Assembly: GCA_022843805.1 (NCBI GenBank)
Contig: JALHMY010000048.1
Location: forward strand, 1-64,000
Direction of reading: 5' to 3'
DNA: 64,000 nt
Origin: Fuerstiella sp.
Lineage (GTDB): Bacteria > Planctomycetota > Planctomycetia > Planctomycetales > Planctomycetaceae
The notes below the pieces were generated by a model that searched no databases, was not told the DNA's origin, and worked only from the letters and a program-made list of their open reading frames with translations. Positions 869 to 21,638 of this stretch are shown piece after piece. Made by a program: the position numbers and the translations under genes. Numbering within the stretch: position 1 is the first letter of the stretch; every line of letters begins with the position of its first letter.

Positions 869-901
869 CGCGTGCTCCTTGTGATGCGAGATAGCGTGAA
901 C

Positions 902-1987: not shown

Positions 1988-1989
1988 CG

Positions 1990-2322: not shown

Positions 2323-2324
2323 TT

Positions 2325-2696
2325 TCAGACCATGATATTGGTTACGTTCGCAGAAAAATCCCGGCATGCGAACCAGATTATGCATTCTTGTTCCGGGTCG
2401 CGAACAAGGTAATTTCCAACCACATTACCCATTTCTTTGGCAGGTCTGATTTCAAGATGGCCAATACTGATTTCGCTCCAGTCTGGTTGTTGGATCCGAA
2501 GCTTTCGCACTCCATCAAACTCGAGATTGAGCCGTTCACTCTGATCTGAAGAACTCTTGCAAAGTATCAGAATAATACGTTGCTCCCAGTCACCATTTGG
2601 ACCTTTACCTTGCAACAATGATAATGAATGCACGACCGAAAACCTGGTTGGTTGCATCGAGTAATATTTATGAATGTGAGATTCGCAATCCATCAT
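2325..2696 (-). CDS. Predicted immunity protein of the RHS toxin tip
   Basis: A 123-residue cytoplasmic-looking protein without signal or membrane segments. Its ATG overlaps the stop of the upstream RHS toxin by the ATGA junction at 2693-2696, so the two are translationally coupled. It has a beta-rich middle (RIILILCKSS, LNLEFDGVRKLRI) and ends FACRDFSANVTNIMV. No immunity family could be assigned from memory. Function is inferred from coupling to the toxin and from size. An in-frame internal ATG at residue 14 is an alternative start, but the overlapping ATG is the better choice. Confidence 0.6.
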   Translation of the reverse strand: MMDCESHIHKYYSMQPTRFSVVHSLSLLQGKGPNGDWEQRIILILCKSSSDQSERLNLEFDGVRKLRIQQPDWSEISIGHLEIRPAKEMGNVVGNYLVRDPEQECIIWFACRDFSANVTNIMV

Positions 2697-3813
2697 TGAG
2701 GAAACTCTCCGAGTAAGTGATCGTCTACCTTTCGGCCAAGTGGAAATTCTGCCGAGTATTGCCAGCGTTCGTAGAGCACGTCCGGAATGTTTGCTGTGCG
2801 ATTTCCCGCGTTATAGTCTGTTCTCCCGATTAACCTACCGAATCCATCGTAGTGGGCTCGCCAAGGCTGAACGCGTCCCAAATCATCCACATAGTGCCCT
2901 TCAAGTTCCAAAGGTCCGGGCTCAACGTTTCGAGGAGCCTTACTTGAAATTGGGCCAATATTTGAAGGTGCTCCTCTTAAACTCGTCTGTCCGGGCAATC
3001 TGCCCATCGTGCCCGGAATGAGCGGTACCATGCCGAGCAGTGCTGGCCAGCTGGGTTTTTTAGTAAATTCCACAAATGAGGCGAGAGTGTCAATCGGATC
3101 GAATGCAGTTCTGATGGCAATGTCGAAACCGTTCACGATGGCCGATGTCGTGATCCCGCCGATTGCATCCACCGTCATCCGGTCCTGAATTCGTCTGGCA
3201 GTCAGTTCGGCGATCAGCATGTCATCCGGATCGTTTCGGTCATAGGCGATCGTCGCCATCCACTCGCTTGGCTGTAAAAAGTTGGATGGTGAGTACACAT
3301 GGAAATAGCCGACGTTTGAAATATAGACGGTCGTGATGAGGTTGGTCCCTCCGGCCTTGCACATCACGGCATTCCACACCGTACTCAGCCAGTTCAGGTA
3401 CCTGTTGTACCGACCCGTAACATCCTGGATATCCGATGCCGTCGGTCGCCAGGACGCTCCGCTGCTGACCGCTGTGTTCCCCGTGGGATCTATAAAACTG
3501 GTCGGGGAATTCTGCACATAGCGGGCGAGATTTGTGTCGAGACCTGCAAAGCCGATGGGGTCATTCGAAACAAAGCGACCTGTGGTCGCGTCATACCATC
3601 GGGCTCGGTAGTAGTATAGTCCGGCCTCCGCATCCCATTCGCGGCCGGTGAACGCGTGAAGCGGGGTGTCTGTCGAACTGGTCTGACCGGCGATCGTTCC
3701 AAACACCGTGTACGTGATGTGATTCAGGACGCTGGTCGTATCTGTCCCGAAATCATACGTGATTAAGTTCCGAATCGTTCCCAGATGATCGGCCGGGGAA
3801 AATCACTTTGAGA
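2693..3813 (-). pseudogene. RHS repeat-associated core with C-terminal toxin tip, 5'-truncated
   Basis: The frame is open from about 3813 (immediately after a TGA) to 2693. It opens with PADHLGTIRNLITYD, the conserved end of RHS/YD repeats, then LHAFTGREWDAEAGLYYYRAR and YDATTGRFVSNDPIGFAG, the RHS core cleavage region, then ARYVQNSPTSFIDPTG. The variable tip follows (about 250 residues) with a hydrophobic stretch (WPALLGMVPLIPGTMG) and the end RTDYNAGNRTANIPD, a pattern also seen at the tips of other polymorphic toxins. A GTG at 3704-3706 could be a start, but the RHS repeats, shell and signal peptide are absent: an intact RHS protein is over 1,000 residues. So this is an orphan RHS tip, as arises when tips are displaced by recombination. 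The immunity gene overlaps its stop. Confidence 0.75.
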
Positions 3814-3880
3814 CGTCAGTCAAAAAAAAGGTCACGGGAGTTACGCACTTCATTAGCGGACTTTCTGGTATACTGAAAAA

Positions 3881-4672
3881 CTATTTTGCAGCCTTGTTGT
3901 CATTGAATTCATCCTGGCTTGCCATTGCACTACCGTCGATCGAAATCGCGACCCTCGTGTTCGGATTGTCGATCTTCAATTCGATTGCCGAAGGGTGGCC
4001 CGGTTCTCCTTCATAAAACTTACAATCCTCTCCGTGCTCCAGACGAAACGCTCCACTTCTAAACCTCTTGTTGCTCGTAAGATTCACTCTGAATCGATAT
4101 TCCCCAGGGGCGAGTTCCGGGAAGACAACACGATTCGTCTGAGAATCCATCCTCGCAAACAGCTCGGTCTCGATGATGAATAAGTATCCGCCAGGAGTTG
4201 AACCATCGCGATTTCCGGGATGCTTTGTTCGAATTTCTTCGGTCCAAAAGGGGTGTCCACTCACTTTTTTAATGTCGAAGTCAAGTGAATGATTTTCTTC
4301 TAAAAGTATGCCAGCGAATGGTGGGTCATCAATTCCCCACATTCCACATGCCGCGGATCGACCTGTACGGTTCACAATTCGTAACGTATCTCCGGGATGC
4401 GCCACAATGACTGGTGGACCGGATTGGCCCTGGTTGGTTTGTGGCCTGCGAAACTCTAAAATCAGTTCTCGCGTTACTGGAGTCTTCCAGTGCCGTTTCA
4501 TCGACGCCGGATACCGGTGAGCATGCATACAAACGGAGTCATTTACCAACTGACTCGCGTTTCGAAGTTCGATTTGAAACTCTGCACTTCTGACCTCTAA
4601 ACCCGTAATTGCGAGGAGGATCAAAGTGACCAGCGAAAAAATGCGTTTAGCAACACGCCAAGTGCAAATCAT
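3881..4672 (-). CDS. Secreted protein, possible cupredoxin-like fold
   Basis: I choose the ATG at 4670-4672 because it starts a clear signal peptide (MICTWRVAKRIFSLVTLILL, cleavage near EVRSA); the frame is open further upstream to 4759, which would bury the signal. The mature part of about 235 residues includes VIVAHPGDTLRIVNRTG and then GYLFIIETELF and PGEYRFRVNLTS, the pattern of beta-sandwich cupredoxin-like proteins, with several His (MHAHR, KRHW, SGHPFW, KHPG) that might bind metal. Family is tentative. The gene stands alone between the RHS remnant and a divergent hydrolase. Confidence 0.6.
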   Translation of the reverse strand: MICTWRVAKRIFSLVTLILLAITGLEVRSAEFQIELRNASQLVNDSVCMHAHRYPASMKRHWKTPVTRELILEFRRPQTNQGQSGPPVIVAHPGDTLRIVNRTGRSAACGMWGIDDPPFAGILLEENHSLDFDIKKVSGHPFWTEEIRTKHPGNRDGSTPGGYLFIIETELFARMDSQTNRVVFPELAPGEYRFRVNLTSNKRFRSGAFRLEHGEDCKFYEGEPGHPSAIELKIDNPNTRVAISIDGSAMASQDEFNDNKAAK

Positions 4673-4851
4673 AGGCACCTTCAGGTGATTTGAGAGTCCA
4701 TTGGCCTGATTCGTAGAAGTTGACATCATCGGACCACTCCTCATTTCCAGGGCAATCATCGAAGATTCTGCACCGGATCTGGTTATCTGGCGAGTACCGT
4801 TCCAGTAAGTAAGGAATTAGATGGTGATTACTCCCATGCACTCATTTTTAG

Positions 4852-5188
4852 TTGCTTCACAAGTTGGAAGTGCCTGCTGCTCCCACCCCCAGCTTCGGTA
4901 AGGAATGCCCTTTCCGAGACGACTGTATCAAATCGCGTTCCTTCACGAACGACATCCTGACCGTTAACGGCGTGATGTCAACCTTGTCGCAGCCCCGTTC
5001 GCTGTCAATCCATTGCGATTCATGGAGCATCTCCAGGTTAGGCAGGTGAATGTAATTTCACATGCCCGCGGGTTGCGTTTCTGCGACGATGTGCGATAGT
5101 CGCTGTCCTGAGGCTGCAGTCCTTAACCGGGTATTTTCGGCCGCCTGATATCTTCAAGGTCGGCAACTTTATCAATGAGCGATTCAAT
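4852..5188. other. Spacer between divergent genes
   Basis: Only short frames without family resemblance. It should hold the promoters of the two flanking divergent genes, but I see no clear promoter or operator. Confidence 0.4.
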
Positions 5189-6838
5189 ATGATTACCATC
5201 CGTGTCACAGGCGGCGATCTGTTGTCTGTCATGTGCATGCTTCTGTGCCTTGTCTCAATGAATGTGACACATGCGGATACCGAAGTCGTCATCCACGGAA
5301 TTGGGTCATCGGTCGCTTCGGCCGTCACGATCAATACCCATGTTGAAAGCGTTACCTACTCGACTCCAAAAGAGGTGCAAATTAACGGAATCGATGCTGT
5401 CGAAATCCGGGGTATTGTCAAAGGTGTGGGCTGGGGAGGCACTGGCATTGTAAACCGAGCGGCGGATGAGCACTATCAGTATCGTATACCGTTTGTTGCC
5501 CGCTGGAGAAAACATGGCCAGTGCTCGCGACTGGTGTTTTTCAATCACGGTGGCGGACTTCGTCTGATCGATGCACTTAAACGTGAAAAGGCAGTGGGGG
5601 CTACCAACGAAAACCGTTTTGCCGAGCTGAATGGCGATAGTCTCGCAGGAGTTCCTGCACTGGTTGGTCAGGCGGTTTACATTTCGATCAACCGACGAGG
5701 GCTCCGGAGCGATGGATCATTTAGTGCAACATACACGAGTTCTGTCTCTCCTCTGACAGCAAACGAGGTCAGTAAGATCGAGATGGAACTGGCGGAGTCC
5801 GGCCCCGCAGGCTTCAAACATCCGGAAATTGTACCGGGAGCACCGGTCCCTGTCCTGCCAACGTATGACGCTGCGACCTGCCGAGACATCGCTCGTGCAC
5901 TTGAGCAGACGGTGGCAGGAATTCTCGGAAAACCCTTTCGTACAAAAATCGCTGTCGGAAATTCGTCAGGAGCCCGACTGTTTGCTGCCATTAACTTCGG
6001 GCGAAGCGTAATCGGCAAAAAGTCGGTCCGGACCGGGGGAAATCAGATTGAGCCGTACGTTAAGTCGTCAGGGCGAATCTTTGATGCTTATCTGTTGATC
6101 GGGTTTCCGTACGAACCTGGAGTTGAGCATGCGGACACTGAGATTCCGATGTCAGCGCCCACCGTTTTTCTGCAGGGACAGGCCGACGAGCGATACCAGC
6201 AGCATGTAACGATGGCCCACGAATTGTTGCTGAAAGGTGTGAGGCTGAATGGTGCAGTCTGGATTTATGACATCAGGAACCTGACCCATATTCCGCGTGA
6301 CATCGTGATGGGACCGCCATCAAATGGCGACCGCCTTGGCTGTTTCGCGAGTGCATCAATTCGTAACCTGACACAACTGATTGAAAATGGACAGACACTC
6401 CCTGTCAGCCGCATGGCCGGGCGAATCATCAACAATGAACTTCAGTTTGATCAGGCTGACGGCTCTGTCACCAGCTCTGCGCCTGTACCGAATGATCCTC
6501 GAATCGACGAGATTGTCATCGCAGCGGACCTGAAGCTGCAGACCCTCGGAAAAGACGAAACAAGTCGCTGGCAGGCAGTAACAGCTGTGCTTCCACGAGT
6601 CTGCGATGCAATTACTCCTCCGACAGTGGCCTGTCGGATCGGAGGATATAAATTGTCGTTCTCCGGTGCTCGGCTGACTCCGTTCTCCTCAGAAGTGCTC
6701 TCGAAGAACTACGGTAGTTTTGAGTGTTACCGATGTCGCATGTGCCAGGTCGTTTGTCGACTTGAACAGCAGCGTCTTTACGATTCACGAGTTGAGTCAG
6801 CGTTTGCAACGGGCGAACTCGCGAAACAACTATTCTGA
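5189..6838 (+). CDS. Secreted alpha/beta hydrolase
   Basis: A 549-residue protein with a signal peptide (LLSVMCMLLCLVSMNVTHA; the start may be the ATG at 5189 or a downstream in-frame ATG). The fold signs are an oxyanion-type motif FFNHGGGLR near residue 118, the nucleophile elbow GNSSGA near residue 258 (G-x-S-x-G), TVFLQGQADERY near residue 330 and a possible catalytic His in NLTHIPRD near residue 367. These fit the large exported alpha/beta hydrolase domain proteins common in planctomycetes; the substrate (ester or amide) is unknown. The last 40 residues contain a Cys-rich run (ECYRCRMCQVVCRLEQQ) unlike the rest, and the +1 frame over the same bases reads VTDVACARSFVDLNSS, so paired frameshifts near 6717-6775 are possible. 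Confidence 0.7.
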   Translation: MITIRVTGGDLLSVMCMLLCLVSMNVTHADTEVVIHGIGSSVASAVTINTHVESVTYSTPKEVQINGIDAVEIRGIVKGVGWGGTGIVNRAADEHYQYRIPFVARWRKHGQCSRLVFFNHGGGLRLIDALKREKAVGATNENRFAELNGDSLAGVPALVGQAVYISINRRGLRSDGSFSATYTSSVSPLTANEVSKIEMELAESGPAGFKHPEIVPGAPVPVLPTYDAATCRDIARALEQTVAGILGKPFRTKIAVGNSSGARLFAAINFGRSVIGKKSVRTGGNQIEPYVKSSGRIFDAYLLIGFPYEPGVEHADTEIPMSAPTVFLQGQADERYQQHVTMAHELLLKGVRLNGAVWIYDIRNLTHIPRDIVMGPPSNGDRLGCFASASIRNLTQLIENGQTLPVSRMAGRIINNELQFDQADGSVTSSAPVPNDPRIDEIVIAADLKLQTLGKDETSRWQAVTAVLPRVCDAITPPTVACRIGGYKLSFSGARLTPFSSEVLSKNYGSFECYRCRMCQVVCRLEQQRLYDSRVESAFATGELAKQLF

Positions 6839-7394
6839 CTCATGCGTCATCCGACAGGGATGGGACCACCGCACAACGCCATTGGTCGTGTTCCTCCACG
6901 AGGTTGTTTCAACTGAGAACAGGGGACCAGATCCCTGGGTGATTGCAGGAACGAATAATGCGGCCGCGATCGCAACGGCTGATGTTCCTCGACCTGGTTT
7001 CTGCATCGCAAGGATCCAGGACAGTTGAACAGAACGATCAATGTCACCGCTGCCGCCGGGTGTGTTTTTCCAGTATGCGTCACCCGTCTGACGACTCCAG
7101 TCGATTTCTTTGTTCTGGCATTTCCTCGTACTCGTACTCGATCGAAACGTCATCGACACGATTCGTTTCAATCCCGATTTTCCCCGACAATCTGATTCAA
7201 CTTCGATTGCGTCACAAACAACAAGCACGTGGTGAGTGTCATGGCAATCCAGCAGGAGATCGCGACTTGATGAGGGCCAGACGATACACGTCAGGTCATT
7301 CGTTATCGAAAATGCGATTTGTTCTTCAACGTCCTTTCGAGCAACTCGGGGGCTTCTCCTGCAACGTGCCAGAACACGGCGAGAGATACGGACT
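6839..7394. other. Spacer without supported gene
   Basis: Several short overlapping frames on both strands are present but none shows a domain, a plausible start or a bias consistent with translation. It may be a decayed gene; I could not identify its parent. Confidence 0.4.
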
Positions 7395-7802
7395 TCAGAT
7401 CTGGCGACCGGTTACTTTCGAGTAGAGCCAGTGTCTCGATTGCGAGTCAAAGTTCCCACCATTTCGAATTTTCATTACGACCACGTCATCTGGGATGTGC
7501 ATTAGTATCTCGTCCTGGTCGTCAAAATAGATCCCAATGTTCTTGTCCTTGATGACGATCGCCTTGTCTTCAAATCGACTGACCAGAATGATCTCCGAAT
7601 ATCGAATGCCGAAAGTGTCGACGTACTGTTTCGCTCTTTCGTAGTCGCGACGAAAGGAAATTACATAGACTTCCGCTGGCCAGAGATGCGACAGAGGCGC
7701 GAAGAAATGTGGTGCCTCGTCGATGCAGCCATCTAAATCGATTCCAATTGCCGGCACGTGATCCAAAGTACTAAGGCTCCGATTTGGAAATGGTTGCTGC
7801 AC
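7395..7802 (-). CDS. HAD-superfamily phosphatase-like protein
   Basis: A 135-residue protein. AIGIDLDGCIDEAPHFF near residue 18 is HAD motif I (DxDGxxxE, with Asp20 and Asp22 as likely nucleophile and acid/base). VYVISFRRDYERAKQY around residue 45 is motif II (Ser/Thr after a hydrophobic strand). KDKNIGIYFDDQDEIL around residue 85 is motif IV (DD). It is short with a minimal cap, like small 5'-nucleotidase or Cof-type hydrolases of phage and environmental bacteria. The substrate is unknown. The start at 7800-7802 leaves a short N-terminus (MQQPFPNRSLS). The gene stands alone. Confidence 0.7.
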   Translation of the reverse strand: MQQPFPNRSLSTLDHVPAIGIDLDGCIDEAPHFFAPLSHLWPAEVYVISFRRDYERAKQYVDTFGIRYSEIILVSRFEDKAIVIKDKNIGIYFDDQDEILMHIPDDVVVMKIRNGGNFDSQSRHWLYSKVTGRQI

Positions 7803-8341
7803 CGATTAGCGATAGGCAGGAATGGCAGTCATTTTTTGTCAGGAATGGATGTGCATTGTCAGCGAAAGTCAAAATCACCGGCTGCGGCTCGTGACATGGA
7901 AATGTTTAGAAAACGCACTACTACAGCTCGGACGCATTCTATTGTTCAGGTCAGCCGTCGTCATGGGGGGATTGTCGTCGGTCAAATGTAGTGCTTCTGT
8001 CTGGAGTTTGCCATAAGTATTCGGGGCCTCTGGCTATTGTACGAACGTCAGTAGGACGCTCTTCTTTCAACAGCCCCTGTCACGTTGAAAATGGAGATCA
8101 CAGGAGACCATCGATCGGTGGAGCGGTGAACCGGGTTGCGGTGTTGCCCGAACCCATGAGTGTGTGTCCGTTTCCTTTGTCACCGAATATGCCCATTCAG
8201 CCGCGATACATTTGTTTGGGCGACCGGGCAAAAATGGGGTTTGCCAATCAACAGTGCGGAACAGATCAGTATTGAAGATCCGAAGATACGACCTGCTGCT
8301 TTGATCAGGCACGTATTCGCTAAATGACTTTTCTTTATCGT
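7803..8341. other. Spacer without recognisable gene
   Basis: No frame with family resemblance on either strand; the sequence precedes a gene remnant and may contain its missing 5' part in unrecognisable form. Confidence 0.4.
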
Positions 8342-8344
8342 TAA

Positions 8345-8716
8345 TGCTGCGCAATCGATTGGCGTGCCAGCGAACGTGCTGGTCAGCCGCAGTTCCTCTA
8401 TGCTGACAAAAAGATCGTGGATATCCCCGGTTTCCCGGATGGCATTACCGGACAGGAGCTTTCCGAACGTACGTTTCGTCAGGCAACAGTTGCCCTGGTT
8501 CAGTTTCGAGTTGAGGAAGAACTGGTCGAAATTCTGGATACTGAGCACGCAGGAAAGGACGATGTCCTGAAGAACGTGATCACGACCAAAGGCGAACACC
8601 TTTGTCGTAAAGTCATTCTTGCCTGCGGTCTGCTGCATTATCCCAGGAAGCTTGCCGTTCTCGACTCGCTTGCAGAGAAAAAAGTCCATTACAAAGTGCC
8701 TCGACTCAACGATTAA
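8345..8716 (+). pseudogene. Fragment of a thioredoxin-reductase-like ferredoxin-NADP reductase
   Basis: After a TAA at 8342-8344 the frame encodes about 123 residues: AGQPQFLYADKKIVDIPGF, then DGITGQELSERTFRQA, then a strand pattern ending RKVILACGLLHYPRKL and EKKVHYKVPRLND. This is the middle of the TrxB-like ferredoxin-NADP reductase family (the GGQ...YP.K.IYDIPGFP...TGQEL region, then the G-x-H-Y stretch). The N-terminal FAD-binding GxGxxG segment and the NADP-binding half are missing, and the frame stops at VPRLND where the family continues. A full-length family member is about 330 residues. No start codon or SD supports expression, so it is a remnant. The minus-strand frame over 8180-8689 is a shadow. 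Confidence 0.7.
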
Positions 8717-8973
8717 AGCTCGTCATGATCGGTGAGAAGATCACTCGAGCCGCCAGTGATCAGCGGCGTGGGCGGCCGTAGGGGAGACCGCTGATAACAG
8801 TGAGTGACTGGAAAAATGGTGGCCCGAAAAAAAGGTTCTGCGCGAAGTGAATCTTCAGAGTTGTTGGGGGATCGGCACGGGAATGGGCTGCGGGTCATCA
8901 CGAACCGCGGCCGTTTCGGTGTGGTTAATCGAGTGAGAGTTCGAGCTCAGCCACTATAAAGGCTTCGCAGAAT

Positions 8974-9024
8974 TTCATTGGCAGAAAAATTTCGTTGGCA
9001 GAAAAATTTCGTTGGCAGAAAAAT
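8974..9024. repeat. Three tandem 17-bp repeats with an inverted partner
   Basis: Units TTCATTGGCAGAAAAAT (8974-8990), TTCGTTGGCAGAAAAAT (8991-9007) and TTCGTTGGCAGAAAAAT (9008-9024) are head-to-tail. Related inverted sequence (TTTTTCTGCC, AATTTTTCTGCCAAAATTTT) lies at about 9129-9166, so the pair could form a large hairpin of about 190 bp. Confidence 0.8.
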
Positions 9025-9374
9025 TATCTGTTCAGAAACATCTCGAAGGATTGAAAGATCTGTTTGGCTGGGCGTTGCGTGGCATCCGCAGAGGAACGTG
9101 CCGGACGCTCCGTCAGAGTCTGCGATTCATTTTTCTGCCCTGAAATTTTTCTGCCAAAATTTTGTTCGCAGATCACCGATGCCGTTTTTCATTGCGTCTC
9201 CGCGTGAGAAGAAAATTCTGCGAAGAGACGCGATGACGCAAAGGCGCAGAGACGTAAAGGGGAGGGGCGAACTTCGACGCCTCTTAACATCGCAGGAGGC
9301 AAGGGCAGTCTCTGATCGGTGACAGGAATTGAAGGTTCTGCGCGAAACGAAGTGCGTGGATCGGAATCGTTTTT

Positions 9375-9545
9375 TAGACCACTAATGAACACTCATAAAC
9401 GCTCATGGTTTCTGAGGTCGAGCCGCGCTCGTCCCGAAGACCTCGTCGAGCAATAACAGCCTTAGTGTTCAATACGGATGATGCCATTGTTTGCCCACCT
9501 GTTTTTCATTGATGAGCGTTCATTAGCGTTCATCAGCGATTGAAA
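9375..9545. repeat. Inverted repeat pair based on ATGAACGCTAATGA-like units
   Basis: CACTAATGAACACTCATAAACGCTCATGG (key units ATGAACACTCA and AACGCTCATG) at about 9379-9408 is mirrored by TGATGAGCGTTCATTAGCG and GTTCATCAGCG at about 9514-9540. The two arms enclose about 110 bp. Such degenerate ATGAACGCT tracts are common intergenic elements of environmental bacteria; no coding function. Confidence 0.6.
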
Positions 9546-9979
9546 CTCATGTCTTCTCCCCGTTTTCTGTTTGGCTGACGCTTAGGTCCGGCCATGGAGA
9601 TCCCTCGCTGTTGCATTTGCTTCGTCCTGGGTCGCGCACTTCACTTCGCGCAGAACCCTAAAAAATTGAATCGAGTTGGCTCGTGATGCCTGCCAATTCA
9701 GAAGAATCTCTTCTTAATCACGAGTTTTAAGCGAAAATCCTCAGCATAATGAGTTGACATGTCGATAGCTCCCGATATATTCAGGAAGAACAATGTGGTG
9801 AGGGAAACGTGAAGGGGCTCGGAGCATGGCGCTGAATGGCCTTCATGCTACGATTAACAGACTGCCGGAGTACAGAGTCGTCAGGCTTCGTGTTCGATTC
9901 AAAGGAACTCGCAGGGAATGCGGCTTGGCCGGCGCTGGTGAGTCTCCCCGGTGAAGCTCAACTTTTGAGGAATCTGCTG

Positions 9980-11689
9980 ATGTCAAAGCCGTTTTGTCGT
10001 TCTTTGTGCTGTTACATTCTGATTAGCAGTATCCTGGTGCCAGGTCTGACCGCACAGGAAAAGAGTGTTCGTCCTGGAGTTAACGATTCCTTTCGGGACC
10101 CGGATCCGAAGCAGTTTACGGAACGATTTGAGATCGAGAGTCGCGAGGTCTTTGCGAAACGAAAGGAGATTCTCGAGGCGATACAGTTAAAGCCAGCGGA
10201 TACGGTGGCTGACATTGGCGCAGGCACCGGCCTGTTTACTCGGCTTTTCGCATCGAAACTCGGTCCTGAAGGTCGAGTGATCGCCGTGGATATCGCTCAG
10301 AAGTTTCTTGATCACATCGAGATCACAAGCCGTGATCAGAAGATTCGCAACGTGGAGACTCTGCTCTGTACGGACGACTCTACGGAACTGCCGCCGGAGT
10401 CAGTCGATGTGGCATTTATCTGCGATACATATCATCACTTTGAGTTTCCTCAAAAGACCATGGCATCGCTGTTGAAGGCACTGAAGCCGGGAGGTCGGCT
10501 GATACTGATTGACTTCAAACGAATTGAAGGAGAGAGCACCGAATGGACTTTGGGACACGTCCGAGCCGGGCAGGAAGTCTTTGAAGCAGAAATTAAGGAA
10601 GTGGGATTTCGCAGGGTTGACGAGATCAGGGGTCTGCTAAAAGAAAATTACATGGTGGTGTTTGAAGCCGACAAACAGCAGCAGGCTTCTGCCGATCAGG
10701 ATCAGAGTTTCCCGGGTCGAGGTCGCGGGCCTGGGCGCGGAATGGGAGCTGGGCGAGGAAGAGGACGTGGTCCGGATGCTGCGATGCGAGCTGACCAGGA
10801 TGTTTTTCATTTCCTGCTTGAGCAGCACGGTCTGATTCGTCGGCAGGTGAAGAATCTGGAAAATGGCGTTGAGACACTGACGGAGTCAGATAATGCAGAG
10901 GTGACGGCAAAGATTCAGGAACATGTCGCGGCGATGCATGGGCGAGTGAAATCCGGCCGTGGTTTACGATTCTGGGACGAGCTGTTTGTTGCTGTCTTCA
11001 AAAACCATGAGAAGATCGACATGGTGGTGGAGAACACGGAACATGGGGTCAAAGTGACAGAGACATCCGGTGATCCATACACGGTAAAGCTGATTCAGGC
11101 TCATGCCATAGTCGTCAGCAGGTTTGTGGAGCGAGGATTCGAAGAGGCTCATGAGCATCATGCGGCTCCCGTCGACGCGGCGGTACCGGTGAAAGCGTCG
11201 GGGGCAGCCGAGACCAGCCTCGTTTTTCCAATCATCAATGGGTACGGGGGAGTCGTTGCAATTGCGGATGCTGTTGAGCCACCGCGGGCAGGGATCAAAG
11301 TCGTTATGGATGTGACAGCGGAGTCGAAGAAGCCTGAAGAAGTTAACAAGGGGCTGGATCGTGCTGCCCGCCTCCTGAATCTTTACGGTGTGTCGGGACT
11401 TAAGGCGTCCGATGTTCAGATCACCGTAGTGCTTCACGGTGAAGCAACCAGGTCGGTGTTGTCAGATGCAGCCTGGGAATCCCGTTTACAGATGAAACAC
11501 AATCCGAATTTGCCGCTGATTCGTCTGTTGCAGGAAGCGGGTGCGGAAGTGATGGTCTGTGGGCAGGCACTCAGTTATAAGAAGATCGATCGTGATGAGG
11601 TTGCCTCTGATATCCCGGTTGCTGCAGCTGCGCTGACAGTGTTATTGCATCGACAGGCGGATGGATTTGCCTATGTGCCTGTGCCTTAA
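9980..11689 (+). CDS. Exported SAM methyltransferase / His-rich domain / DsrE-like fusion protein
   Basis: The ATG at 9980 starts a signal peptide (CRSLCCYILISSILVPGLTA); upstream in-frame codons to 9836 would bury it. The protein is about 569 residues with three modules. (1) Residues about 60-240: class I SAM methyltransferase with VADIGAGTGLFTRLF (motif I), VIAVDIAQKFLDHI, DVAFICDTYHHF and LKPGGRLILIDFKRI. (2) A Gly/Arg-rich linker (PGRGRGPGRGMGAGRGRGRG) then a His-rich domain, FHFLLEQHGLIRRQVKNLE to EEAHEHH, of unknown function. (3) Residues about 400-569: DsrE/DsrF-like domain (GIKVVMDVTAESKKPEEVN, ASDVQITVVLHGEATR, AGAEVMVCGQALSYKKI) with a Cys at the position often used by sulfur-carrier members. 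It stands 65 bp upstream of an RND adaptor gene on the same strand. Exported methyltransferase plus sulfur-relay type domain suggests handling of a sulfur, metalloid or toxic compound; this is inference. Confidence 0.75.
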   Translation: MSKPFCRSLCCYILISSILVPGLTAQEKSVRPGVNDSFRDPDPKQFTERFEIESREVFAKRKEILEAIQLKPADTVADIGAGTGLFTRLFASKLGPEGRVIAVDIAQKFLDHIEITSRDQKIRNVETLLCTDDSTELPPESVDVAFICDTYHHFEFPQKTMASLLKALKPGGRLILIDFKRIEGESTEWTLGHVRAGQEVFEAEIKEVGFRRVDEIRGLLKENYMVVFEADKQQQASADQDQSFPGRGRGPGRGMGAGRGRGRGPDAAMRADQDVFHFLLEQHGLIRRQVKNLENGVETLTESDNAEVTAKIQEHVAAMHGRVKSGRGLRFWDELFVAVFKNHEKIDMVVENTEHGVKVTETSGDPYTVKLIQAHAIVVSRFVERGFEEAHEHHAAPVDAAVPVKASGAAETSLVFPIINGYGGVVAIADAVEPPRAGIKVVMDVTAESKKPEEVNKGLDRAARLLNLYGVSGLKASDVQITVVLHGEATRSVLSDAAWESRLQMKHNPNLPLIRLLQEAGAEVMVCGQALSYKKIDRDEVASDIPVAAAALTVLLHRQADGFAYVPVP

Positions 11690-11754
11690 CGTTAATTTCG
11701 TCGGAGCTAATCGCTCAGATGCTTGTATCCGTGGTGTTCTCTGGAGGGTGGTGA

Positions 11755-12870
11755 ATGTCTGCTCCGCCAAAAGCTGCCGCAGCCTCATTGAATCGTCTCA
11801 GGTGGCTGCTGGGTGTCGTGATGACGGCAATCGTGGCTCTGATGCTTCTCGCTCTGGCGGGAGTGTTTCATCGCAAGGTTCCCTCTCAGGCGTCTGATTT
11901 ACAGTATCGATCAGCTGAAGGGCTCACGACGGTAGCTGTTCAACTGATTCGACGGCCCCGTTTCGAGACAGCTACAGGAACTGTAAAGCCAGTTTACGAA
12001 TCGGCTGTTGCGGCAAAGCTGCTGGCAAAAGTTCTGGAGATCAGTGTGACCGCCGGTCAGGCTGTCCTGAAGGACCAGGTTCTTGTGAAGCTGGACGACG
12101 CCGAACTGCAGGCTCGACTTAAGCAGGCTGAAGCCGGATTCACCAGTGCTCAGGTGCGCAGCGAGCAGACAAAAACGGAATTTGGGCGAGCGGAGCAGCT
12201 TCAGGCAAAAAAGGCGATTTCGCGAACAGAATTTGATGCAGCGCAATCAGCAATGAAGGGGGCCGCTGCGGACCTGGAACGAGCATCTCAGAGTGTCCGT
12301 GAATCTCAGGTGATGCTTGACTATGCAACGATCAGGTCGCCAATGTCGGGCGTCGTCATTGACAAGCGAGTCGAAGTCGGTGATACCGTCAGTCCCGGTC
12401 AGGTACTGCTGACTCTGTTTGATCCGACTCACATGCAGATGGTTGCCTCCGTGCGTGAATCACTGGCGCTGAAGCTCAAACCGGGCCAGTTGCTGTCGAC
12501 TCGCCTGGACGCTCTCGACTTTGAATGCGAAGCAACGATCAGTGAGGTGGTTCCTGAAGCCGATGTGGCCAGTCGATCGTTTACCGTGAAGGTTACGGGA
12601 CCATGTCCGCCCGGAGTCTACAGCGGTATGTTCGGACGTCTGATGCTTCCGCTGGAAGATGAAGAGATACTGGTGATTCCGGAAAACGCTGTTCAGAAAG
12701 TTGGTCAGCTGACGATGGTGGAGGTGGTGCAGGATAACGCAGTATTTCGTCGCAGTATTCGCCCAGGACGTAATCTGGGTTCCGATGTGGAAGTGTTATC
12801 AGGCCTTGTAGAAGGCGATCTGGTTGTCGTGAACCAGGCATCCCCCGGCAGTTCACCTGTGAGTCTTTAA
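11755..12870 (+). CDS. RND efflux system periplasmic adaptor (membrane fusion protein)
   Basis: A 371-residue protein with an SD (GGAGG, about 7 bases before the ATG) and an N-terminal membrane anchor (VVMTAIVALMLLALAGVF). It has the order expected of HlyD/AcrA adaptors: a biotinyl-lipoyl half (AKVLEISVTAGQAVLKDQ), an alpha-helical hairpin (QARLKQAEAGFTSAQVRSEQ to SQSVRESQ), the second lipoyl half (ATIRSPMSGVVIDKRVEVGD), a beta-barrel (MQMVASVRESLALKLKPG) and a membrane-proximal domain (VIPENAVQKVG, EVLSGLVEGDLVVV). It would link the RND permease encoded 21 bp downstream to an outer-membrane channel not seen in this window. Confidence 0.85.
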   Translation: MSAPPKAAAASLNRLRWLLGVVMTAIVALMLLALAGVFHRKVPSQASDLQYRSAEGLTTVAVQLIRRPRFETATGTVKPVYESAVAAKLLAKVLEISVTAGQAVLKDQVLVKLDDAELQARLKQAEAGFTSAQVRSEQTKTEFGRAEQLQAKKAISRTEFDAAQSAMKGAAADLERASQSVRESQVMLDYATIRSPMSGVVIDKRVEVGDTVSPGQVLLTLFDPTHMQMVASVRESLALKLKPGQLLSTRLDALDFECEATISEVVPEADVASRSFTVKVTGPCPPGVYSGMFGRLMLPLEDEEILVIPENAVQKVGQLTMVEVVQDNAVFRRSIRPGRNLGSDVEVLSGLVEGDLVVVNQASPGSSPVSL

Positions 12871-12891
12871 CAGCAACAGGGGTTTAGTGTC

Positions 12892-15800
12892 ATGACGACA
12901 ACTATCGACGCTGATTCTGATCAGGGTCCCTCCGATCCGCTGTCTCAAATCGTGCGGATTTTTCTGGAATCGAATCTGTCAGTCATTCTGATTGTATTTT
13001 CGGTGATTGTCGGCGTTGCCGCTCTGCTGATTACGCCACGGGAAGAAGATCCTCAGATCGTTGTACCGCTGGCCGATATCTACGTGAGTTTTCCTGGACA
13101 TTCGGCGGCCGAAGTTGAACAGCTGGTGTCGACGCCTCTTGAACGCATGCTGTATCAGATTGACGGCGTTGAATATGTATACAGCATGTCTCGTGAGAAC
13201 CAGGCGATCATAACGGTTCGGTTCTATGTTGGTCAGGACCGTGAACGCAGTCTGGTGAAGCTGTTCAGGAAGATTGAAGAAAACCAGGATCAGATTCCTC
13301 CCGGCGTTGCAGGCTGGGTGATGAAGCCGGTAGAGATTGATGATGTGCCGGTGACTACGCTGACACTGAAGAGTTCTGGCTACGATACGCATACCCTGCG
13401 TCGAATCGGTGAAGAAGTTGTGGAACGTCTGTCTGCTGTTCCACAGGTTTCAAGGGCTGAAGTGATCGGTGGTGAGCCTCGCACCATTCGTCTTAACATT
13501 GATCCCGAGCGTCTTCGGGGATACAGACTGAGTGTGCTGGAGGTTCACCGGGCGATTCGGGGAGCGAACGTATCGCTGCCAGCTGGTGAACTGACTTAGA
13601 TGGATCGGGTGGTCCGAGTCGAAGCGGCTGCCGCAATTGTGCGTCCGGAGCAGCTGAATGAGCTGGTCATTGGGGTCTCCAGCGGACATCCCGTGTTTCT
13701 GAAGGATGTTGCGGCAGTTGAAGATGCTCCTGCTGAGATTTCCAGCTATGTGCGACATGGATGGGGACCGGCCCGAAGATTCTCGCCTCACGCACACGAC
13801 CATTCAGAATCGGCCCAAACGTCTGTCACGGTTTCGCCGAAGGACGGTGAGACTGCAGAACCATCCGATTCCGCAGTAACCATCGCAATCTCCAAACAGA
13901 AGGGCGCCAATGCCGTCACGGTGGCGGAAGAGGTGATTCAGGCGGCCCGACAGCTGGAAGCAAATGTTCTGCCAGCTGGTGTTGAGTTGCTCGTCACACG
14001 AAACTATGGTTACACCGCCAACGAGAAGGTCAATGAGCTGGTTGAAGGGCTGGGAGTCGCGATCGTTATTGTAATTGCATTGCTCACAATGAGTCTCGGC
14101 TGGCGTGAAGCATTCATTGTGGCCGTGGCAGTACCCGTTGTATTTGGGTTAACACTGGCGGTGAATCTGCTGTTTGGATACACGATCAACCGTGTCACTC
14201 TGTTTGCACTGATCCTTTCGCTTGGCCTGCTGGTTGATGACCCGATTGTGGACGTCGAAAATATCGCTCGGCACTTTGAAGAAAAGAAAAAGGCAACTCG
14301 TCGAATCGTACTGGAGGCTGTGGCTGAGATTCGTCCGCCTCTGATTAGCGCAACTCTGGCAGTGATTGTCAGCTTTCTGCCGATGTTTTTTATCACCGGA
14401 ATGATGGGCCCGTATATGTCGCCCATGGCGCTGAATGTTCCGATTTCCATGCTGATGTCGATGCTGGTGGCTTTCACGATCACACCATGGCTTTGTTTTC
14501 ATATGCTCAAAGGAAAGGCGACCGCTCATCAGGCTCCTGAAACGTCTGACGGGATGGGAACATCTGACGGGATGGGAACTGTCAGGGCAGGTGAATCGAC
14601 TTCAGGTGCGGGATCGACGGTGCACGAGATCTACGATCCGGAGATTGTCAGGCAATCGTTTCTTTATCGTTTTTTTCGTCCCATTATGGTGCCGATGCTG
14701 AAGACTCGACTGCGAGCAGCCGGTTTTCTGATGCTGATGGCCGGGCTGACTCTGGCAACAGCCGGGCTCGCAGCCACTCGGTCTGTCCCGCTGAAAATGC
14801 TTCCGTTTGACAATAAGAACGAATTTTTGCTCGTACTTGATATGAATGAAGGGACGTCGCTGGAACGAACCAATGCGGTGGTTTCGGAGTTCGAGCGGGT
14901 GCTTACCACAGTTCCGGAAGTGACCGAATATATGAGCTATGTGGGTACCCCTGGCCCGATTGACTTCAACGGGCTGGTGAGGCACTACTATTTGCGACAC
15001 GGGTCACATCTTGCCGAAATTCGAGTCAATCTTGCAGGCAAAAAGAATCGCGAGCAGCAGAGTCATGCCATTACTCTTCGGCTTCGTGACCAGCTGACTG
15101 CGCTGGCTGAAAAGCATAACGCACTCATTCGCCTTGTGGAGCTGCCCCCGGGCCCGCCTGTCCTGTCGTCGGTGGTTGCTGAAGTCTATGGTCAGGCCGA
15201 TCACAGTTATAACGACCTGCTTAACAGTGCCGACAAAGTTGCCGATCGCCTGAAGGCAGAGCCTGGTCTTGTGGAGGTCGATGATATTCGTGAATTCACA
15301 ACAGACAAGCTGGTGTTTTTGACAGATCAGGAGAAAGCCGCGATTGCCGGGATTTCAGTCGCGGAGATAGCTGAGACTCTGAAAATGGCGCTGGGCGGGA
15401 CGGACGACGAACTCGTGCGACTCGAAGGCGAACGACATCCGCTGCGTATTAATCTTCGACTGCCGGAAGCCATTCGTTCCAGCAAACACGACCTAAGCCA
15501 GCTGCACATGAAATCGGCAAGCGGTGATCTGGTTGCACTGGCCGAGCTGGGATCGTGGGAGAACCGCCGTGTTGATCAGACAATTTATCACAAAAATCTT
15601 CGGCCTGTGGTCTACGTATTTGCGGAGTGCGCGGGACGTCCTCCTGCCGAGTGTATCGTTGATGTACAGGCCGATCAGGTTGATGCGGATGCGGAAGTTG
15701 TCGGCGGCGGATCGGGTGAGTCACGCGGTGCTCGGCCAGTGGAATCGCGGACGTATTTCAGGAATGGCAGTGGGATCGCATGGAGCGTTCCGGCAGGGAT

Positions 15801-16383
15801 TGACGTCGTATTCTCCGGGGAAGGCGAATGGAAAATTACGCTTGACGTCTTTCGTGATCTCGGCCTGGCTTTCGCAGCGGCAATGGTGATGATCTATATC
15901 ATTCTGGTTGCACAAACTGGTTCTTTCGCGTTGCCCATTGTCGTGATGATGGCGATTCCACTGACGATCACTGGTGTCATGCCAGGCTTCTGGCTGCTGA
16001 ATGCAATCAACGGAAGTGTCGTGGGAGGATATGCTGATCCAGTGTACTTTACGGCCACTGCAATGATTGGCATGATCGCACTGGCCGGAATCGTAACGCG
16101 TGATTCGATTATTTTGGTTGACTTTATCGAACTGGCGATTCGACATGGCCGACCGCTGTTTGATGCCATTCTGGAAAGCCGAGTGGTCAGGCTGCGTCCG
16201 ATCCTGCTGACCGCGGGTGCCGCGCTGCTTTCCAGCCTTCCGATTACGCTCGACCCAATCTTTTCGGGACTGGGCTGGTCTCTGATCTTTGGTCTGATCG
16301 CATCGACTGCGTTCACGCTGTTTGTCATTCCCGTTTCTTACTGGCTCTTAAAGGCAGAAAGAAAGCAGGAAAGAGTCTCCTAA
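12892..16383 (+). pseudogene. RND efflux permease split by an in-frame TAG
   Basis: Two frames in the same phase, 12892-13599 and 13600-16383, are separated only by a TAG at 13597-13599; joined they encode about 1163 residues, the usual RND (AcrB/HAE1-like) length. The first part has TM1 and the start of the porter domain, ending VSLPAGELT; the second starts MDRVVRVEAAAAIV, where homologues continue without break, usually with Gln at the stop position (CAG to TAG). The second part has the TM2-TM6 block with LGLLVDDPIVDVENIARHF (the charged TM4 motif), ISATLAVIVSFLPMFFITGM, the second porter domain and the second membrane block. TAG is followed directly by ATG with a GGTGA 9 bases upstream, so reinitiation is conceivable, but the product would lack TM1. 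An internal direct repeat encodes TSDGMGTSDGMGT. Cargo unknown; nearby genes suggest toxic compound export. Confidence 0.8.
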
Positions 16384-16475
16384 GGACCTCGAAAACAATA
16401 AGTGACCGCCATAGTCGCCTTTCGCTCCGCGAAAGAGCATTCTTTTGCGGAGCAAAAGGCGACACTGGGATGGAC
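16383..16475. mobile_element. MITE-like palindromic element, copy 1 (right end truncated)
   Basis: The element begins inside the TAA stop codon of the RND permease (TAAGGACC) and contains the central palindrome GTCGCCTTTCGCTCCGCGAAAG ... CTTTTGCGGAGCAAAAGGCGAC. After GACACT the match to the other copies stops, so the right terminal repeat (ATTGTCTGACAGCGCCT in copy 2) is lost. Same orientation as copy 2. Confidence 0.8.
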
Positions 16476-16479
16476 ATGG

Positions 16480-16920
16480 ATCGTTACTGCTGATTGCATT
16501 TGCCGTTGCTGATGATCGTAGTTTAGCCCGTGTGAGGCTTAGGGATGTTTCTGGACACGGTCTTCCTCCTGACTGGTTTCAGATAGCTTGTCGCTGCCGC
16601 AGCCAGCAACACGGACAACTTCTAATCCATCCACAGGTAAATGGTGCGCAAGACAAAGCAATCCGACAAGACCGGATTGCGATAAATGAAGAAATTGCCG
16701 CCCAGCAGCACTCGCCCTCAAATTGCTCGCTGGCTATGGACGTTTGGTCAGAGGCTGCATTGCCCGACAGGATTTTGAAGAATGTTGGGAGGGAATGTCG
16801 ATTCGGCAATGGTCCGATCGACAATCTGGTGATGTTTGGTGCCTGCACTGGATAAGTCGATCCCGCCAGCCGGACGGACGGCTCGGCGAAAAAAATGATT
16901 CACATATTGTTGAGGAAAAC
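16480..16920. other. Spacer without supported gene
   Basis: Open frames on both strands overlap here but none has domains or a plausible start. The SRPBCC gene frame is open back to 16723 but the start at 16921 is preferred. Confidence 0.4.
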
Positions 16921-17382
16921 ATGATGGTCCAATCAACTGGCACCGTGCGATTGCATCGCGTGTTCAAGACCACTCCCGAACGGCTCTACCGAGCTTTTGT
17001 AGACCCCGATGCAATGGCTCGCTGGCTGCCGCCGTATGGGTTCCTGGGAAAAGTTCATCAGATTGATGCGAAGGTTGGCGGTACATACTCAATGTCGTTT
17101 ACGAACTTCGGAACGGGACACAGCCATTCTTTCGGGGGCACGTTTAAAGAGTTGATTCCTGGAGAGCGAATCTGTATCGCTGACCGTTTCGATGACCCCG
17201 GTATGCCGGGCGAGATGATCAAGACCATTTCCCTTCGACCGGTCATCTGCGGCGTGGAACTCACCGTTGTACACGAAGGTATCCCGCAGGCCATTCCGGT
17301 TGAAATGTGTTATCTGGGATGGCAGGAATCGCTGGCACAACTTCAGCAACTGGTCGAACCGGAAATCCCCGGGGGAAGTTAA
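16921..17382 (+). CDS. SRPBCC (AHSA1-like) family protein
   Basis: About 153 residues starting MMVQSTGTVRLHRVF. It has the family order: VFKTTPERLYRAFVDPDAM (ligand-pocket helix), then RWLPPYGFLGKVHQIDAKVG, GGTFKELIPGERICIADRF, ELTVVHEGIP and the C-terminal helix YLGWQESLAQLQQLVEPE. This is the AHSA1 / START-like branch with a hydrophobic cavity, often annotated as activator of Hsp90 homologue or polyketide-cyclase-like; the ligand is unknown. The frame is open upstream to 16723, but the alignment of the family begins at the chosen start. No SD is obvious (GAGGAAAAC 10 bases upstream is a weak candidate). Confidence 0.75.
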   Translation: MMVQSTGTVRLHRVFKTTPERLYRAFVDPDAMARWLPPYGFLGKVHQIDAKVGGTYSMSFTNFGTGHSHSFGGTFKELIPGERICIADRFDDPGMPGEMIKTISLRPVICGVELTVVHEGIPQAIPVEMCYLGWQESLAQLQQLVEPEIPGGS

Positions 17383-17418
17383 GGGAATTTGAACGCTGAA
17401 GCAAGGCTGGTGTAGTAG

Positions 17419-18270
17419 CGGGATGCGGGAGCTATTGGGGCGGCGTTCTGTGCAACGCGCGGCGAGCCCTCCCCCGGCCTTCGGCCGACCCCTCCCACTC
17501 CGCTTCGCTTCGCGGGAGGGGAGGTTATAATTACCTCCTCTCCCGGCGAAGCTGGGGGAGGTCGATCGAGCGAAGCAAGATCGGGAGGGGGCTGGTGAAC
17601 ATCGGGGCGCGGGTGTTTTTGGTACGGCGTTGAGTACAACGCGCGGCGAGCCCTCCCCCGGCCTTCGGCCGACCCCTCCCACTCCGCTTCGCTGCGCGGC
17701 AGGGGAGGTTATAATTACCCCCTCTCCCGGCGAAGCCGGGGGAGGTCGATCGAGCGTCAGCAAGATCGGGAGGGGGCTGGTGAACAACGGGGCGCGGGTG
17801 TTTTTGGTACGGCGTTGAGTGCAACGCGCGGCGAGCCCTCCCCCGGCCTGACGGCCGACCCCTCCCACTCTGCTTCGCTTCGCGGGAGGGGAGGTTATAA
17901 TTACCTCCTCTCCCGGCGAAGCCGGGGGAGGTCGATCGAGCGATAGCAAGATCGGGAGGGGGCTGGTGAACATCGGGGCGCGGGTGTTTTTGGTACGGCG
18001 TTGAGTGCAACGCGCGGCGAGCCCTCCCCCGGCCTATCGGCCGACCCCTCCCACTTCGCTTTGCTGCGCGGGAGGGGGGGGGGTATAAATACCTACTCTC
18101 CCGGCGAAGCCGGGGGAGGTCGATCGAGCGTCAGCAAGATCGGGAGGGGGCTGGTGAACATCGGGGCGCGGGTGTTTTTGGTACGGCGTTGAGTGCAACG
18201 CGCGGCGAGCCCTCCCCCGGCCTATCGGCCGACCCCTCCCACTTCGCTTCGCTGCGTGGGAGGGGAGGGC
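17419..18270. repeat. Tandem array 1 of a ~185-bp GC-rich unit (about 4.5 copies)
   Basis: Units start with TGCAACGCGCGGCGAGCCC-like sequence at about 17451, 17635, 17820, 18006 and 18194 (spacing 184, 185, 186, 188 bp). Each has CCCTCCCCCGGCC then a variable slot, CGGCCGACCCCTCCC, a CGCTTCGC tract, GGCGAAGCCGGGGGAGG, AGCG then a second variable slot, CAAGATCGGGAGGGGG, and GTGTTTTTGGTACGGCG. Long minus-strand frames across the array (for example 17089-17973) repeat P, S and R with the unit and are artefacts. It lies between convergent genes. Confidence 0.9.
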
Positions 18271-18326
18271 TTGCGTCGTACGCTACTCTTCTTCCGGGCA
18301 GGCTGTGTCGTACGGCGATTTTGGCA

Positions 18327-20204: not shown

Positions 20205-20230
20205 GGATGAGGTCCTGTTTCGACAGAGGT

Positions 20231-21553: not shown

Positions 21554-21638
21554 GAAGGCTCTTCCCTTTTGCAAAAACAGCCATCGGTAATCGGCGAATT
21601 ACGATAGATTTGAATGATAAAAAATGGTGATTGAGTAC

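What the first reader, a model, noticed from the sequence alone, without database searches (positions are those of the whole stretch)
9980..11689. Exported methyltransferase / His-rich / DsrE fusion beside an RND pump
A class I methyltransferase, an uncharacterised His-rich domain and a DsrE-like domain are in one exported polypeptide, joined by a Gly/Arg linker. Methylation and sulfur-relay domains are normally cytoplasmic; together in the periplasm and 65 bp upstream of an RND adaptor and permease they suggest a pathway that modifies a compound (perhaps a metalloid, thiol or chalcogen) before export. I know of no named system with this layout.
Basis: partly seen in the sequence, partly recalled or inferred. 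Interest (0 to 1): 0.75.

Follow-up and report, generated by a model that had tools for sequence, protein, structure and literature searches.

The report
Exported sulfur-carrier and methyltransferase fusion protein
A planctomycete gene makes one exported protein that joins a methyltransferase, an undescribed histidine-containing domain and a sulfur-carrier domain; many of its relatives lie in hydrogen-sulfide detoxification gene clusters and a few beside an efflux pump, so it probably handles reactive sulfur outside the cell membrane.

Summary
ATG 9980 to stop 11689 encodes 569 residues: signal peptide, class I methyltransferase, Gly/Arg linker, an undescribed domain, and a DsrE domain with a conserved Cys (C527). 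An RND adaptor starts 65 bp downstream; the RND permease is interrupted by one in-frame TAG (13597-13599).

Relatives explain it better than the pump does. The domains occur fused, in pairs, or as separate genes. Loci with the middle domain are enriched for reactive-sulfur genes (persulfide dioxygenase, SQR, TauE or CoA-disulfide reductase type): 32 of 76, against 0 of 40 fixed-position and 0 of 19 paralogue regions. RND adaptor plus permease lie beside 10 of 76, against 0 of 59 controls. The window's own genome keeps its sulfide locus on another contig.

The middle "His-rich" domain is a tandem duplication of a ~60-residue alpha-beta-beta-alpha unit; no Pfam or PDB relative was found. Best reading: a periplasmic sulfane-sulfur-handling protein of the sulfide-detoxification module, with the RND pump as an accessory. 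What the methyltransferase methylates, and how SAM would reach it, is open: 27 stand-alone copies fetched for the test had no sulfur gene nearby, though several others do. "Modify, then export" is partly supported for sulfur and unproven for modification.

The parts
9980..11689 (+). Gene for the 569-aa exported MT-HIS-DsrE fusion (P0001)
9980..10054 (+). Sec-type signal peptide, residues 1-25 (inferred by eye; cleavage A25|Q26)
   Evidence: sequence; similar N-termini in relatives
10145..10699 (+). Class I SAM methyltransferase domain (residues 56-240); GAGTGL at 80-85, CDTYHHFE at 148-155
10700..10777 (+). Gly/Arg-rich linker (residues 241-266), low confidence in the model
10778..11152 (+). 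Undescribed 'HIS' domain (residues 267-391): two alpha-beta-beta-alpha repeats; conserved H315, M319, D333, E361, S363, H375, with H394 just after it
11213..11683 (+). DsrE-like domain (residues 412-568) with conserved C527
11755..12870 (+). RND periplasmic adaptor (membrane fusion protein), 65 bp downstream
   Evidence: TIGR01730 202.4 bits, cut-off 94.9
12892..13599 (+). RND permease, first frame (235 aa), ends at in-frame TAG 13597-13599
13600..16383 (+). RND permease, second frame (927 aa), starts with ATG directly after the TAG

Best explanation
It is an exported (periplasmic) reactive-sulfur-handling protein belonging to the sulfide-detoxification module (SQR, persulfide dioxygenase, rhodanese, TauE, ArsR-type repressor) of planctomycetes. 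Shown: a signal-like N-terminus, three domains, intact DsrE Cys and SAM motif, and gene linkage in relatives. Inferred: the DsrE domain takes up sulfane sulfur (persulfide or polysulfide made during sulfide oxidation, or thiosulfate-derived) on C527; the duplicated HIS domain, with paired conserved His, binds a soft metal or serves as a docking or redox site; the methyltransferase domain would act on the same or a related thiol/sulfur species. In this genome and some others the gene lies upstream of an RND adaptor and permease, which would clear sulfur or thiol products from the periplasm. The least certain steps are the methyl acceptor, the source of SAM in the periplasm, and the pump's substrate.
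For: Neighbours assigned by Pfam and best NCBIfam match as MBL-rhodanese (PDO type), SQR type III-like, TauE, CoA-disulfide reductase-rhodanese, rhodanese-YgaP, ArsR, SoxA/TsdA-like cytochrome c. Of 76 HIS loci, 32 have PDO, SQR, TauE or CoADR within 6 kb, against 0 of 40 fixed-position regions and 0 of 19 exported-paralogue regions; Fisher p 3e-10, overstated because loci are related. By architecture: HIS-DsrE 14 of 24, MT-HIS-DsrE 4 of 7, MT-HIS 1 of 1, HIS alone 13 of 44; stand-alone DsrE 5 of 8. L054 has MT, HIS and DsrE as separate genes on one strand with SQR, TauE, PDO, rhodanese and ArsR. On proteobacterial plasmids, 4 of 6 DsrE-homologue regions opened hold PDO/Blh-type, TauE and YeeE genes, 3 of these 4 also ArsR. 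DsrE Cys in 12 of 12 aligned. RND adaptor plus permease within 6 kb of 10 of 76, against 0 of 59 (one fixed-position region has an RND hit alone); in 13 of 13 distinct HIS-RND loci, window included, on the same strand. L057, L062 and L074 have sulfur genes, HIS-DsrE and RND in one direction. PMC12423496 (passages read) reports RND pumps among neighbours of sulfane-sulfur-responsive ArsR regulators.
Against: PDO and SQR of this genome are on contig C28, not in the window, and no sulfur probe matched window 1-19900. 44 of 76 HIS loci show no PDO/SQR/TauE/CoADR within 6 kb; with full flanks 22 of 41 do not. Curated NCBIfam cut-offs for SQR, Blh, BigR and CoA-disulfide reductase are not met by the neighbours, so their functions are inferred. 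Stand-alone MT copies: 0 of 27; five further MT-DsrE fusions: 0 of 5. Of the DsrE plasmid regions, one (Acinetobacter) has no sulfur gene and one is unannotated. Some HIS homologues sit with copper or mercury genes. The control regions come from other genomes of the group than the 76 loci. SAM in the periplasm is not established. All evidence is genomic.
Confidence: 0.6

Rival explanations
1. Thiophilic-metal or metalloid detoxification: the HIS domain binds copper, mercury or arsenic species, the methyltransferase methylates the metal(loid) or a thiol complex, and the RND pump exports it.
For: HIS homologues beside merA, an MBL hydrolase, ArsR and an RND permease on an Acidiphilium plasmid (L251), beside copper P-type ATPase and CsoR on a Mycobacterium plasmid (L257), and in L258 beside an isoprenylcysteine-methyltransferase-family gene and a class I methyltransferase with a metal ATPase nearby (that methyltransferase is not of this subfamily). 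The window carries ArsA and an ArsM-ArsD fusion 2-5 kb past the pump on the other strand; L105 and L318 also hold ArsA/ArsM-ArsD with sulfur genes. The RND adaptor's second-best NCBIfam model is CzcB/NccB (146.6 bits, cut-off 319.3 not met).
Against: ArsA within 6 kb of only 1 of 76 HIS loci; copper and mercury genes were not probed. The MT domain falls far below the arsenite-methyltransferase cut-off (41.7 against 263). The metal-linked cases are few and outside the phylum. CusA/CzcA permease cut-off not met.
Confidence: 0.2
2. The RND pump is a general efflux system next to the fusion by chance, and plays no part in the fusion's work.
For: The same RND subfamily occurs in 24 of 99 genomes; of 20 regions fetched, 16 show no MT/HIS/DsrE or sulfur gene, some on short contigs, and 1 of the other 4 only weakly. 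Only 2 of 9 distinct three-domain loci have RND next to them (window, L101), two of the nine being on contigs under 5 kb. The window's permease is interrupted by a stop.
Against: RND adaptor plus permease beside HIS loci 10 of 76 against 0 of 59 controls (p 0.002); same strand in 13 of 13, and -8 to 68 nt between open frames in five (L039, L074, L101, L106, window).
Confidence: 0.3
3. The methyltransferase domain has no SAM chemistry in the periplasm and serves as a scaffold or ligand-binding fold; the protein is only a sulfur carrier.
For: No periplasmic SAM supply is known to me (general knowledge, not searched for as such); two-domain HIS-DsrE proteins do without the MT (24 of 76 loci).
Against: A G(A/T)GTGL SAM motif and YHHFE are kept in 17 of 17 aligned copies; in 32 further copies GxGxG is kept in 32 and (Y/F)HHFE in 31, which argues for a conserved active site.
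Confidence: 0.25

Closest known systems
BigR/Blh (ArsR - persulfide dioxygenase - TauE) sulfide-detoxification operon of Xylella and Agrobacterium (PMC5823870, passages read)
   Same: Many relatives' loci hold the same kinds of parts: ArsR-type repressor, PDO-type MBL protein with a sulfurtransferase domain, TauE exporter
   Different: The exported MT-HIS-DsrE protein is not among the operon's genes in the passages read; BigR and Blh equivalog cut-offs are not met; the window's own copy is away from its sulfide locus
YrkD-controlled sqr/pdo cluster of Bacillus licheniformis and CstA (RHOD-TusA-DsrE fusion) of Staphylococcus aureus (PMC9918477, passages read)
   Same: A DsrE-type sulfane-sulfur carrier, fused to other domains in CstA, encoded with SQR, PDO, TauE, rhodanese and thioredoxin
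   Different: Here the DsrE domain is exported and fused to a methyltransferase and an undescribed domain; no rhodanese or TusA domain
DsrE-family proteins on proteobacterial plasmids (L223, L224, L253, L254)
   Same: Related DsrE domain (36 and 38% identity for the two aligned) in a similar sulfur neighbourhood
   Different: Annotated as single DsrE proteins; accompanied by multicopper oxidase or YeeE/DUF6691 rather than MT, HIS or RND
Sulfane-sulfur-responsive ArsR regulators with RND pumps among their neighbours (PMC12423496, passages read)
   Same: Genomic link between reactive-sulfur control and RND efflux
   Different: No MT-HIS-DsrE protein in the passages read

Membership tests
DsrE/DsrF-like family (PF02635) | Pfam gathering score | tested here: met
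   37.5 to 40.7 bits against 22.7; PDB relatives 2pd2, 1l1s
DsrE/DsrF-like family (PF02635) | Conserved sulfur-carrying Cys | tested here: met
   C527, kept in 12 of 12 aligned; that it carries sulfur was not testable
DsrEFH / TusBCD complex | Cytoplasmic; encoded with DsrF and DsrH partners | tested here: inconclusive
   Signal-like N-terminus argues against the cytoplasm; DsrF/DsrH were not probed
Class I SAM-dependent methyltransferase | Fold, Pfam cut-off and SAM motif | tested here: met
   Methyltransf_31 58.8 against 27; GAGTGL; top fold match 3dh0, TM-score 0.85 by target length
Class I SAM-dependent methyltransferase | Catalytic activity | not testable with these tools
   none
Arsenite methyltransferase ArsM | NCBIfam cut-off NF008823 | tested here: not met
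   41.7 against 263
UbiE/MenG methyltransferase | NCBIfam cut-off NF001240 | tested here: not met
   50.9 against 378
BigR/Blh-type sulfide operon | ArsR repressor, PDO and TauE next to the gene | tested here: not met
   No hit of these probes in window 1-19900; present in many relatives. The genome's ArsR-like fragment, rhodanese, PDO and SQR are on contig C28
CstA (RHOD-TusA-DsrE fusion) | Rhodanese and TusA domains | tested here: not met
   No such Pfam hit in the 569 aa
RND tripartite efflux | Adaptor family cut-off | tested here: met
   TIGR01730 202.4 against 94.9
RND tripartite efflux | Continuous permease reading frame | tested here: not met
   In-frame TAG 13597-13599; open in L039 and L101
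CusA/CzcA heavy-metal RND permease | TIGR00914 cut-off | tested here: not met
   175.7 against 701.45 for the longer frame; 212.7 for the uninterrupted relative in L039
Any known family for the HIS domain | Match to Pfam or the PDB | tested here: inconclusive
   No Pfam hit for the window's copy; scattered weak hits (best E 0.00036, one member) among 75 members; no PDB sequence match better than E 0.6; Foldseek best E 0.27; VIA-align best Z 5.7

The most novel reading that the evidence does not exclude
A periplasmic S-methylation step in sulfide detoxification: sulfane sulfur captured on the DsrE domain is methylated by the fused, exported SAM-dependent methyltransferase, and the methylated sulfur (or thiol) is expelled by an RND pump. 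SAM would be delivered by a dedicated transporter; the APC-family permease found downstream of 11 of 27 stand-alone methyltransferases of this subfamily (0 of 60 control regions) is a candidate.
Probability: 0.15. Interest if true: 0.85.

Novelty: new variant of a known kind. Interest (0 to 1): 0.55.

Why it matters
It ties an undescribed, duplicated domain and an exported methyltransferase to reactive-sulfur metabolism in planctomycetes, and gives a concrete gene context in which RND efflux and sulfide detoxification meet. If the methyltransferase works outside the cytoplasm it would raise the question of how SAM gets there, and the APC-permease association makes that question testable.

Tried and rejected
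Literature: nine searches answered. No paper in the library holds DsrE, methyltransferase, planctomycet and RND together, nor DsrE, methyltransferase, fusion, signal peptide and sulfur oxidation together; the others gave context only. This covers one open-access library, not all print. Four papers were seen as passages; all others only as search listings.

HIS-domain identity: Pfam, PDB sequence search, Foldseek and VIA-align gave no convincing relative; a weak resemblance to Pcc1-like folds (Z 5.7) was not taken as meaningful.

Methyltransferase by neighbours: 27 stand-alone copies, which I picked's rows, had no PDO, SQR, TauE or CoADR within 6 kb (20 of them with full flanks); this counts against sulfur methylation as the subfamily's general role. 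Stand-alone copies that happened to lie in regions fetched for other reasons behave otherwise: in L036-L131, 6 of 7 distinct loci have such a gene within 6 kb (L047, L052, L054, L099 on the same strand; L049, L065 on the other; L106 has none), and so has L266. That set is biased, since most of those regions were chosen for HIS or DsrE.

Metalloid link through the ArsA/ArsM-ArsD genes of the window: rejected as the main reading because ArsA is near only 1 of 76 HIS loci.

BigR-type cysteine pair: the neighbouring ArsR proteins have several conserved Cys, but I did not map them to the BigR pair, so no claim is made.

Rows dropped and repeats: L188 was taken out of the paralogue control because its region had been picked by a DsrE hit, leaving 19; it is still in the 60. 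'13 distinct' is after removing L130 and L278 (the same region as L053) and leaving aside L266 (MT only, opposite strand) and L275 (weak DsrE). The 76 HIS loci come from one pattern-based scan; some genomes give two loci.

Full report
WHAT IS THERE. The reading frame starting at ATG 9980 and ending at 11689 encodes 569 residues; a longer start at 9836 is possible, but relatives begin at the signal peptide and a GAGG motif precedes 9980. hmmscan finds a class I methyltransferase at 71-199 and DsrE at 459-566, both above curated cut-offs, and nothing in between. AlphaFold on a 47-row alignment gives mean pLDDT 87.0 and pTM 0.50: three confident domains with low-confidence joints at 241-264 and 402-411, so their mutual placement is not known. 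The SAM motif GAGTGL (80-85), CDTYHHFE (148-155) and the DsrE VCGQ Cys (C527) are in place.

EXPORT. The N-terminus looks like a Sec signal peptide, and similar ones precede the MT and HIS domains of the relatives shown and most of the 32 MT copies. A second methyltransferase family, 32-40% identical over the MT domain and seen in many genomes, was looked at in 19 loci; all 19 have such an N-terminus. Exported methyltransferase folds are therefore not peculiar to this gene. All this was judged by eye; no signal-peptide program was available.

THE MIDDLE DOMAIN. Predicted alone from 75 sequences it is confident (pLDDT 93.2, pTM 0.85). Its elements repeat with a period of 60 residues (helix, two strands, helix, twice), and the two halves match each other by profile comparison (probability 98%, P 4e-14). 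Eleven positions are invariant in the 75 sequences, among them H315, M319, D333, E361 and S363; H375 and H394 are at least 90% conserved (numbering). H315 and H375 occupy the same place in the two repeats. Sequence and fold searches gave no convincing relative, which does not prove a new fold.

DOMAIN SHUFFLING. Of 99 genomes searched, the window's own included, three others have the full three-domain gene at 65-67% identity. A scan of named genomes found 76 loci with the middle domain: 44 with it as the only one of the three domains in its frame, 24 HIS-DsrE, 7 MT-HIS-DsrE and 1 MT-HIS. Of the 44, six have a separate DsrE and four a separate MT gene within 6 kb. In L054 all three are separate genes on one strand among SQR, TauE, PDO, rhodanese and ArsR genes.

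SULFUR NEIGHBOURHOOD. Genes beside these domains were assigned, by Pfam hits above cut-off and by best NCBIfam matches, as MBL-rhodanese (PDO type), SQR-like, TauE, CoA-disulfide reductase-rhodanese, rhodanese-YgaP, ArsR and SoxA/TsdA-type cytochrome; the NCBIfam cut-offs for SQR, Blh, BigR and CoA-disulfide reductase themselves are not met, so functions are inferred. Within 6 kb, PDO, SQR, TauE or CoADR accompany 32 of 76 HIS loci (19 of 41 with full flanks), 0 of 40 regions at fixed positions in relatives' chromosomes, and 0 of 19 paralogue loci (Fisher p 3e-10). The p-value is overstated, since the loci share ancestry, and the controls come from other genomes of the group. MT-DsrE fusions are linked in 6 of the 11 loci but in 0 of 5 more. 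Stand-alone DsrE is linked in 5 of 8, and stand-alone MT in 0 of 27; among stand-alone MTs met in regions fetched for other reasons, 6 of 7 distinct loci and L266 are linked. So the sulfur link follows the DsrE and HIS domains; the methyltransferase joins it only in part. Outside the phylum I opened six plasmid regions with a DsrE homologue: four (Novosphingobium, two Sphingobium, Pantoea) hold PDO/Blh-type, TauE and YeeE genes, three of these also ArsR; Acinetobacter has none and Caballeronia is unannotated.

RND PUMP. RND adaptor and permease lie within 6 kb of 10 of 76 HIS loci and of 0 of 59 controls, though one fixed-position control has an RND hit alone (p 0.002). In the 13 distinct HIS loci with RND listed, window included, both are on the same strand. 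L074 (ArsR, rhodanese, HIS-DsrE, adaptor, permease), L062 (PDO, bacterioferritin, HIS-DsrE, adaptor, permease) and L057 unite both neighbourhoods in one direction. Conversely, the RND subfamily occurs in 24 of 99 genomes. Of the 22 besides the window's genome and G001, I fetched 20: 16 show no link, some on short contigs, three do (L266, L277, L278) and one is weak (L275). The pump is a recurrent partner, not a constant one. In the window its permease frame is broken by one TAG, immediately followed by ATG; whether this is a mutation, a split protein or an assembly error cannot be told.

OWN GENOME. The window's genome has PDO (93% identical to that of L040's locus) and SQR on contig C28, with rhodanese, a thioredoxin-like frame (named by its WCGPC motif, from recall) and a shortened ArsR-like frame, but no MT, HIS or DsrE hit there. 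It has one copy of the fusion; its other hits match the MT part only.

METAL CONTEXTS. HIS homologues on plasmids lie beside merA, an MBL hydrolase, ArsR and an RND permease (Acidiphilium), beside copper ATPase and CsoR (Mycobacterium), and beside two methyltransferase-family genes, a thioredoxin and a metal ATPase; two others have no clear theme. A metal-binding role of the HIS domain therefore remains open.

LITERATURE. Passages of four papers were read. BigR/Blh/TauE detoxifies sulfide (PMC5823870). DsrE, rhodanese and TusA homologues are encoded with sqr and pdo in B. licheniformis and fused in S. aureus CstA (PMC9918477). Neighbourhoods of sulfane-sulfur-responsive ArsR regulators include RND pumps (PMC12423496). 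DsrE and TusA may pass sulfane sulfur towards PDO in Beggiatoa (PMC11507549). The searches returned no paper.

VERDICT. The anatomy is real and the sulfur reading is well supported by linkage and controls. The chemistry is not shown. I file it as a new variant of the known SQR/PDO reactive-sulfur module, with an undescribed domain, and not as a proven modify-and-export pathway.

Noticed in passing
L289, L290, L292, L294-L297, L300-L303: 11 of 27 stand-alone methyltransferases of this subfamily are followed on the same strand by an APC-family amino-acid permease (gaps -204 to 627 nt between open frames), against 0 of 60 control regions; outside these, 1 of the 96 loci L036-L131 has one (L086). 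It could move SAM, methionine or the methyl acceptor. The 11 may share ancestry.
   Followed up: partly
window 13597-13599: RND permease frame interrupted by an in-frame TAG, with ATG immediately after it; relatives L039 and L101 are uninterrupted.
   Followed up: partly
window 18327-21574 (-): ArsA tandem ATPase (TIGR04291, 776.8 bits) and an ArsM-ArsD fusion. L105 and L318 also combine ArsA/ArsM-ArsD with sulfur genes.
   Followed up: no
window 17089-18010 (-): Repeated stretches whose minus-strand frames read 'ARSTSPGFAGRGGNYNLPSREAKRSGRGRP'-like units; they look like a repeated non-coding element.
   Followed up: no
L219:5908-6132 (G000 contig C28): The ArsR-like frame at the head of the genome's own sulfide locus lacks the middle part present in relatives' repressors.
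   Followed up: no
L187, L189-L206: A second family of methyltransferases with signal-like N-termini; most of the 19 copies share a 'DPNGIGKFYMGREIAxVMG'-like stretch; function unknown.
   Followed up: no
L065-L068, L117: HIS loci with, in several of them, an adaptor-like gene and, by the start of their sequences, a MacB-type ATPase and FtsX-like permease nearby instead of RND; named from recall of such sequences.
   Followed up: no
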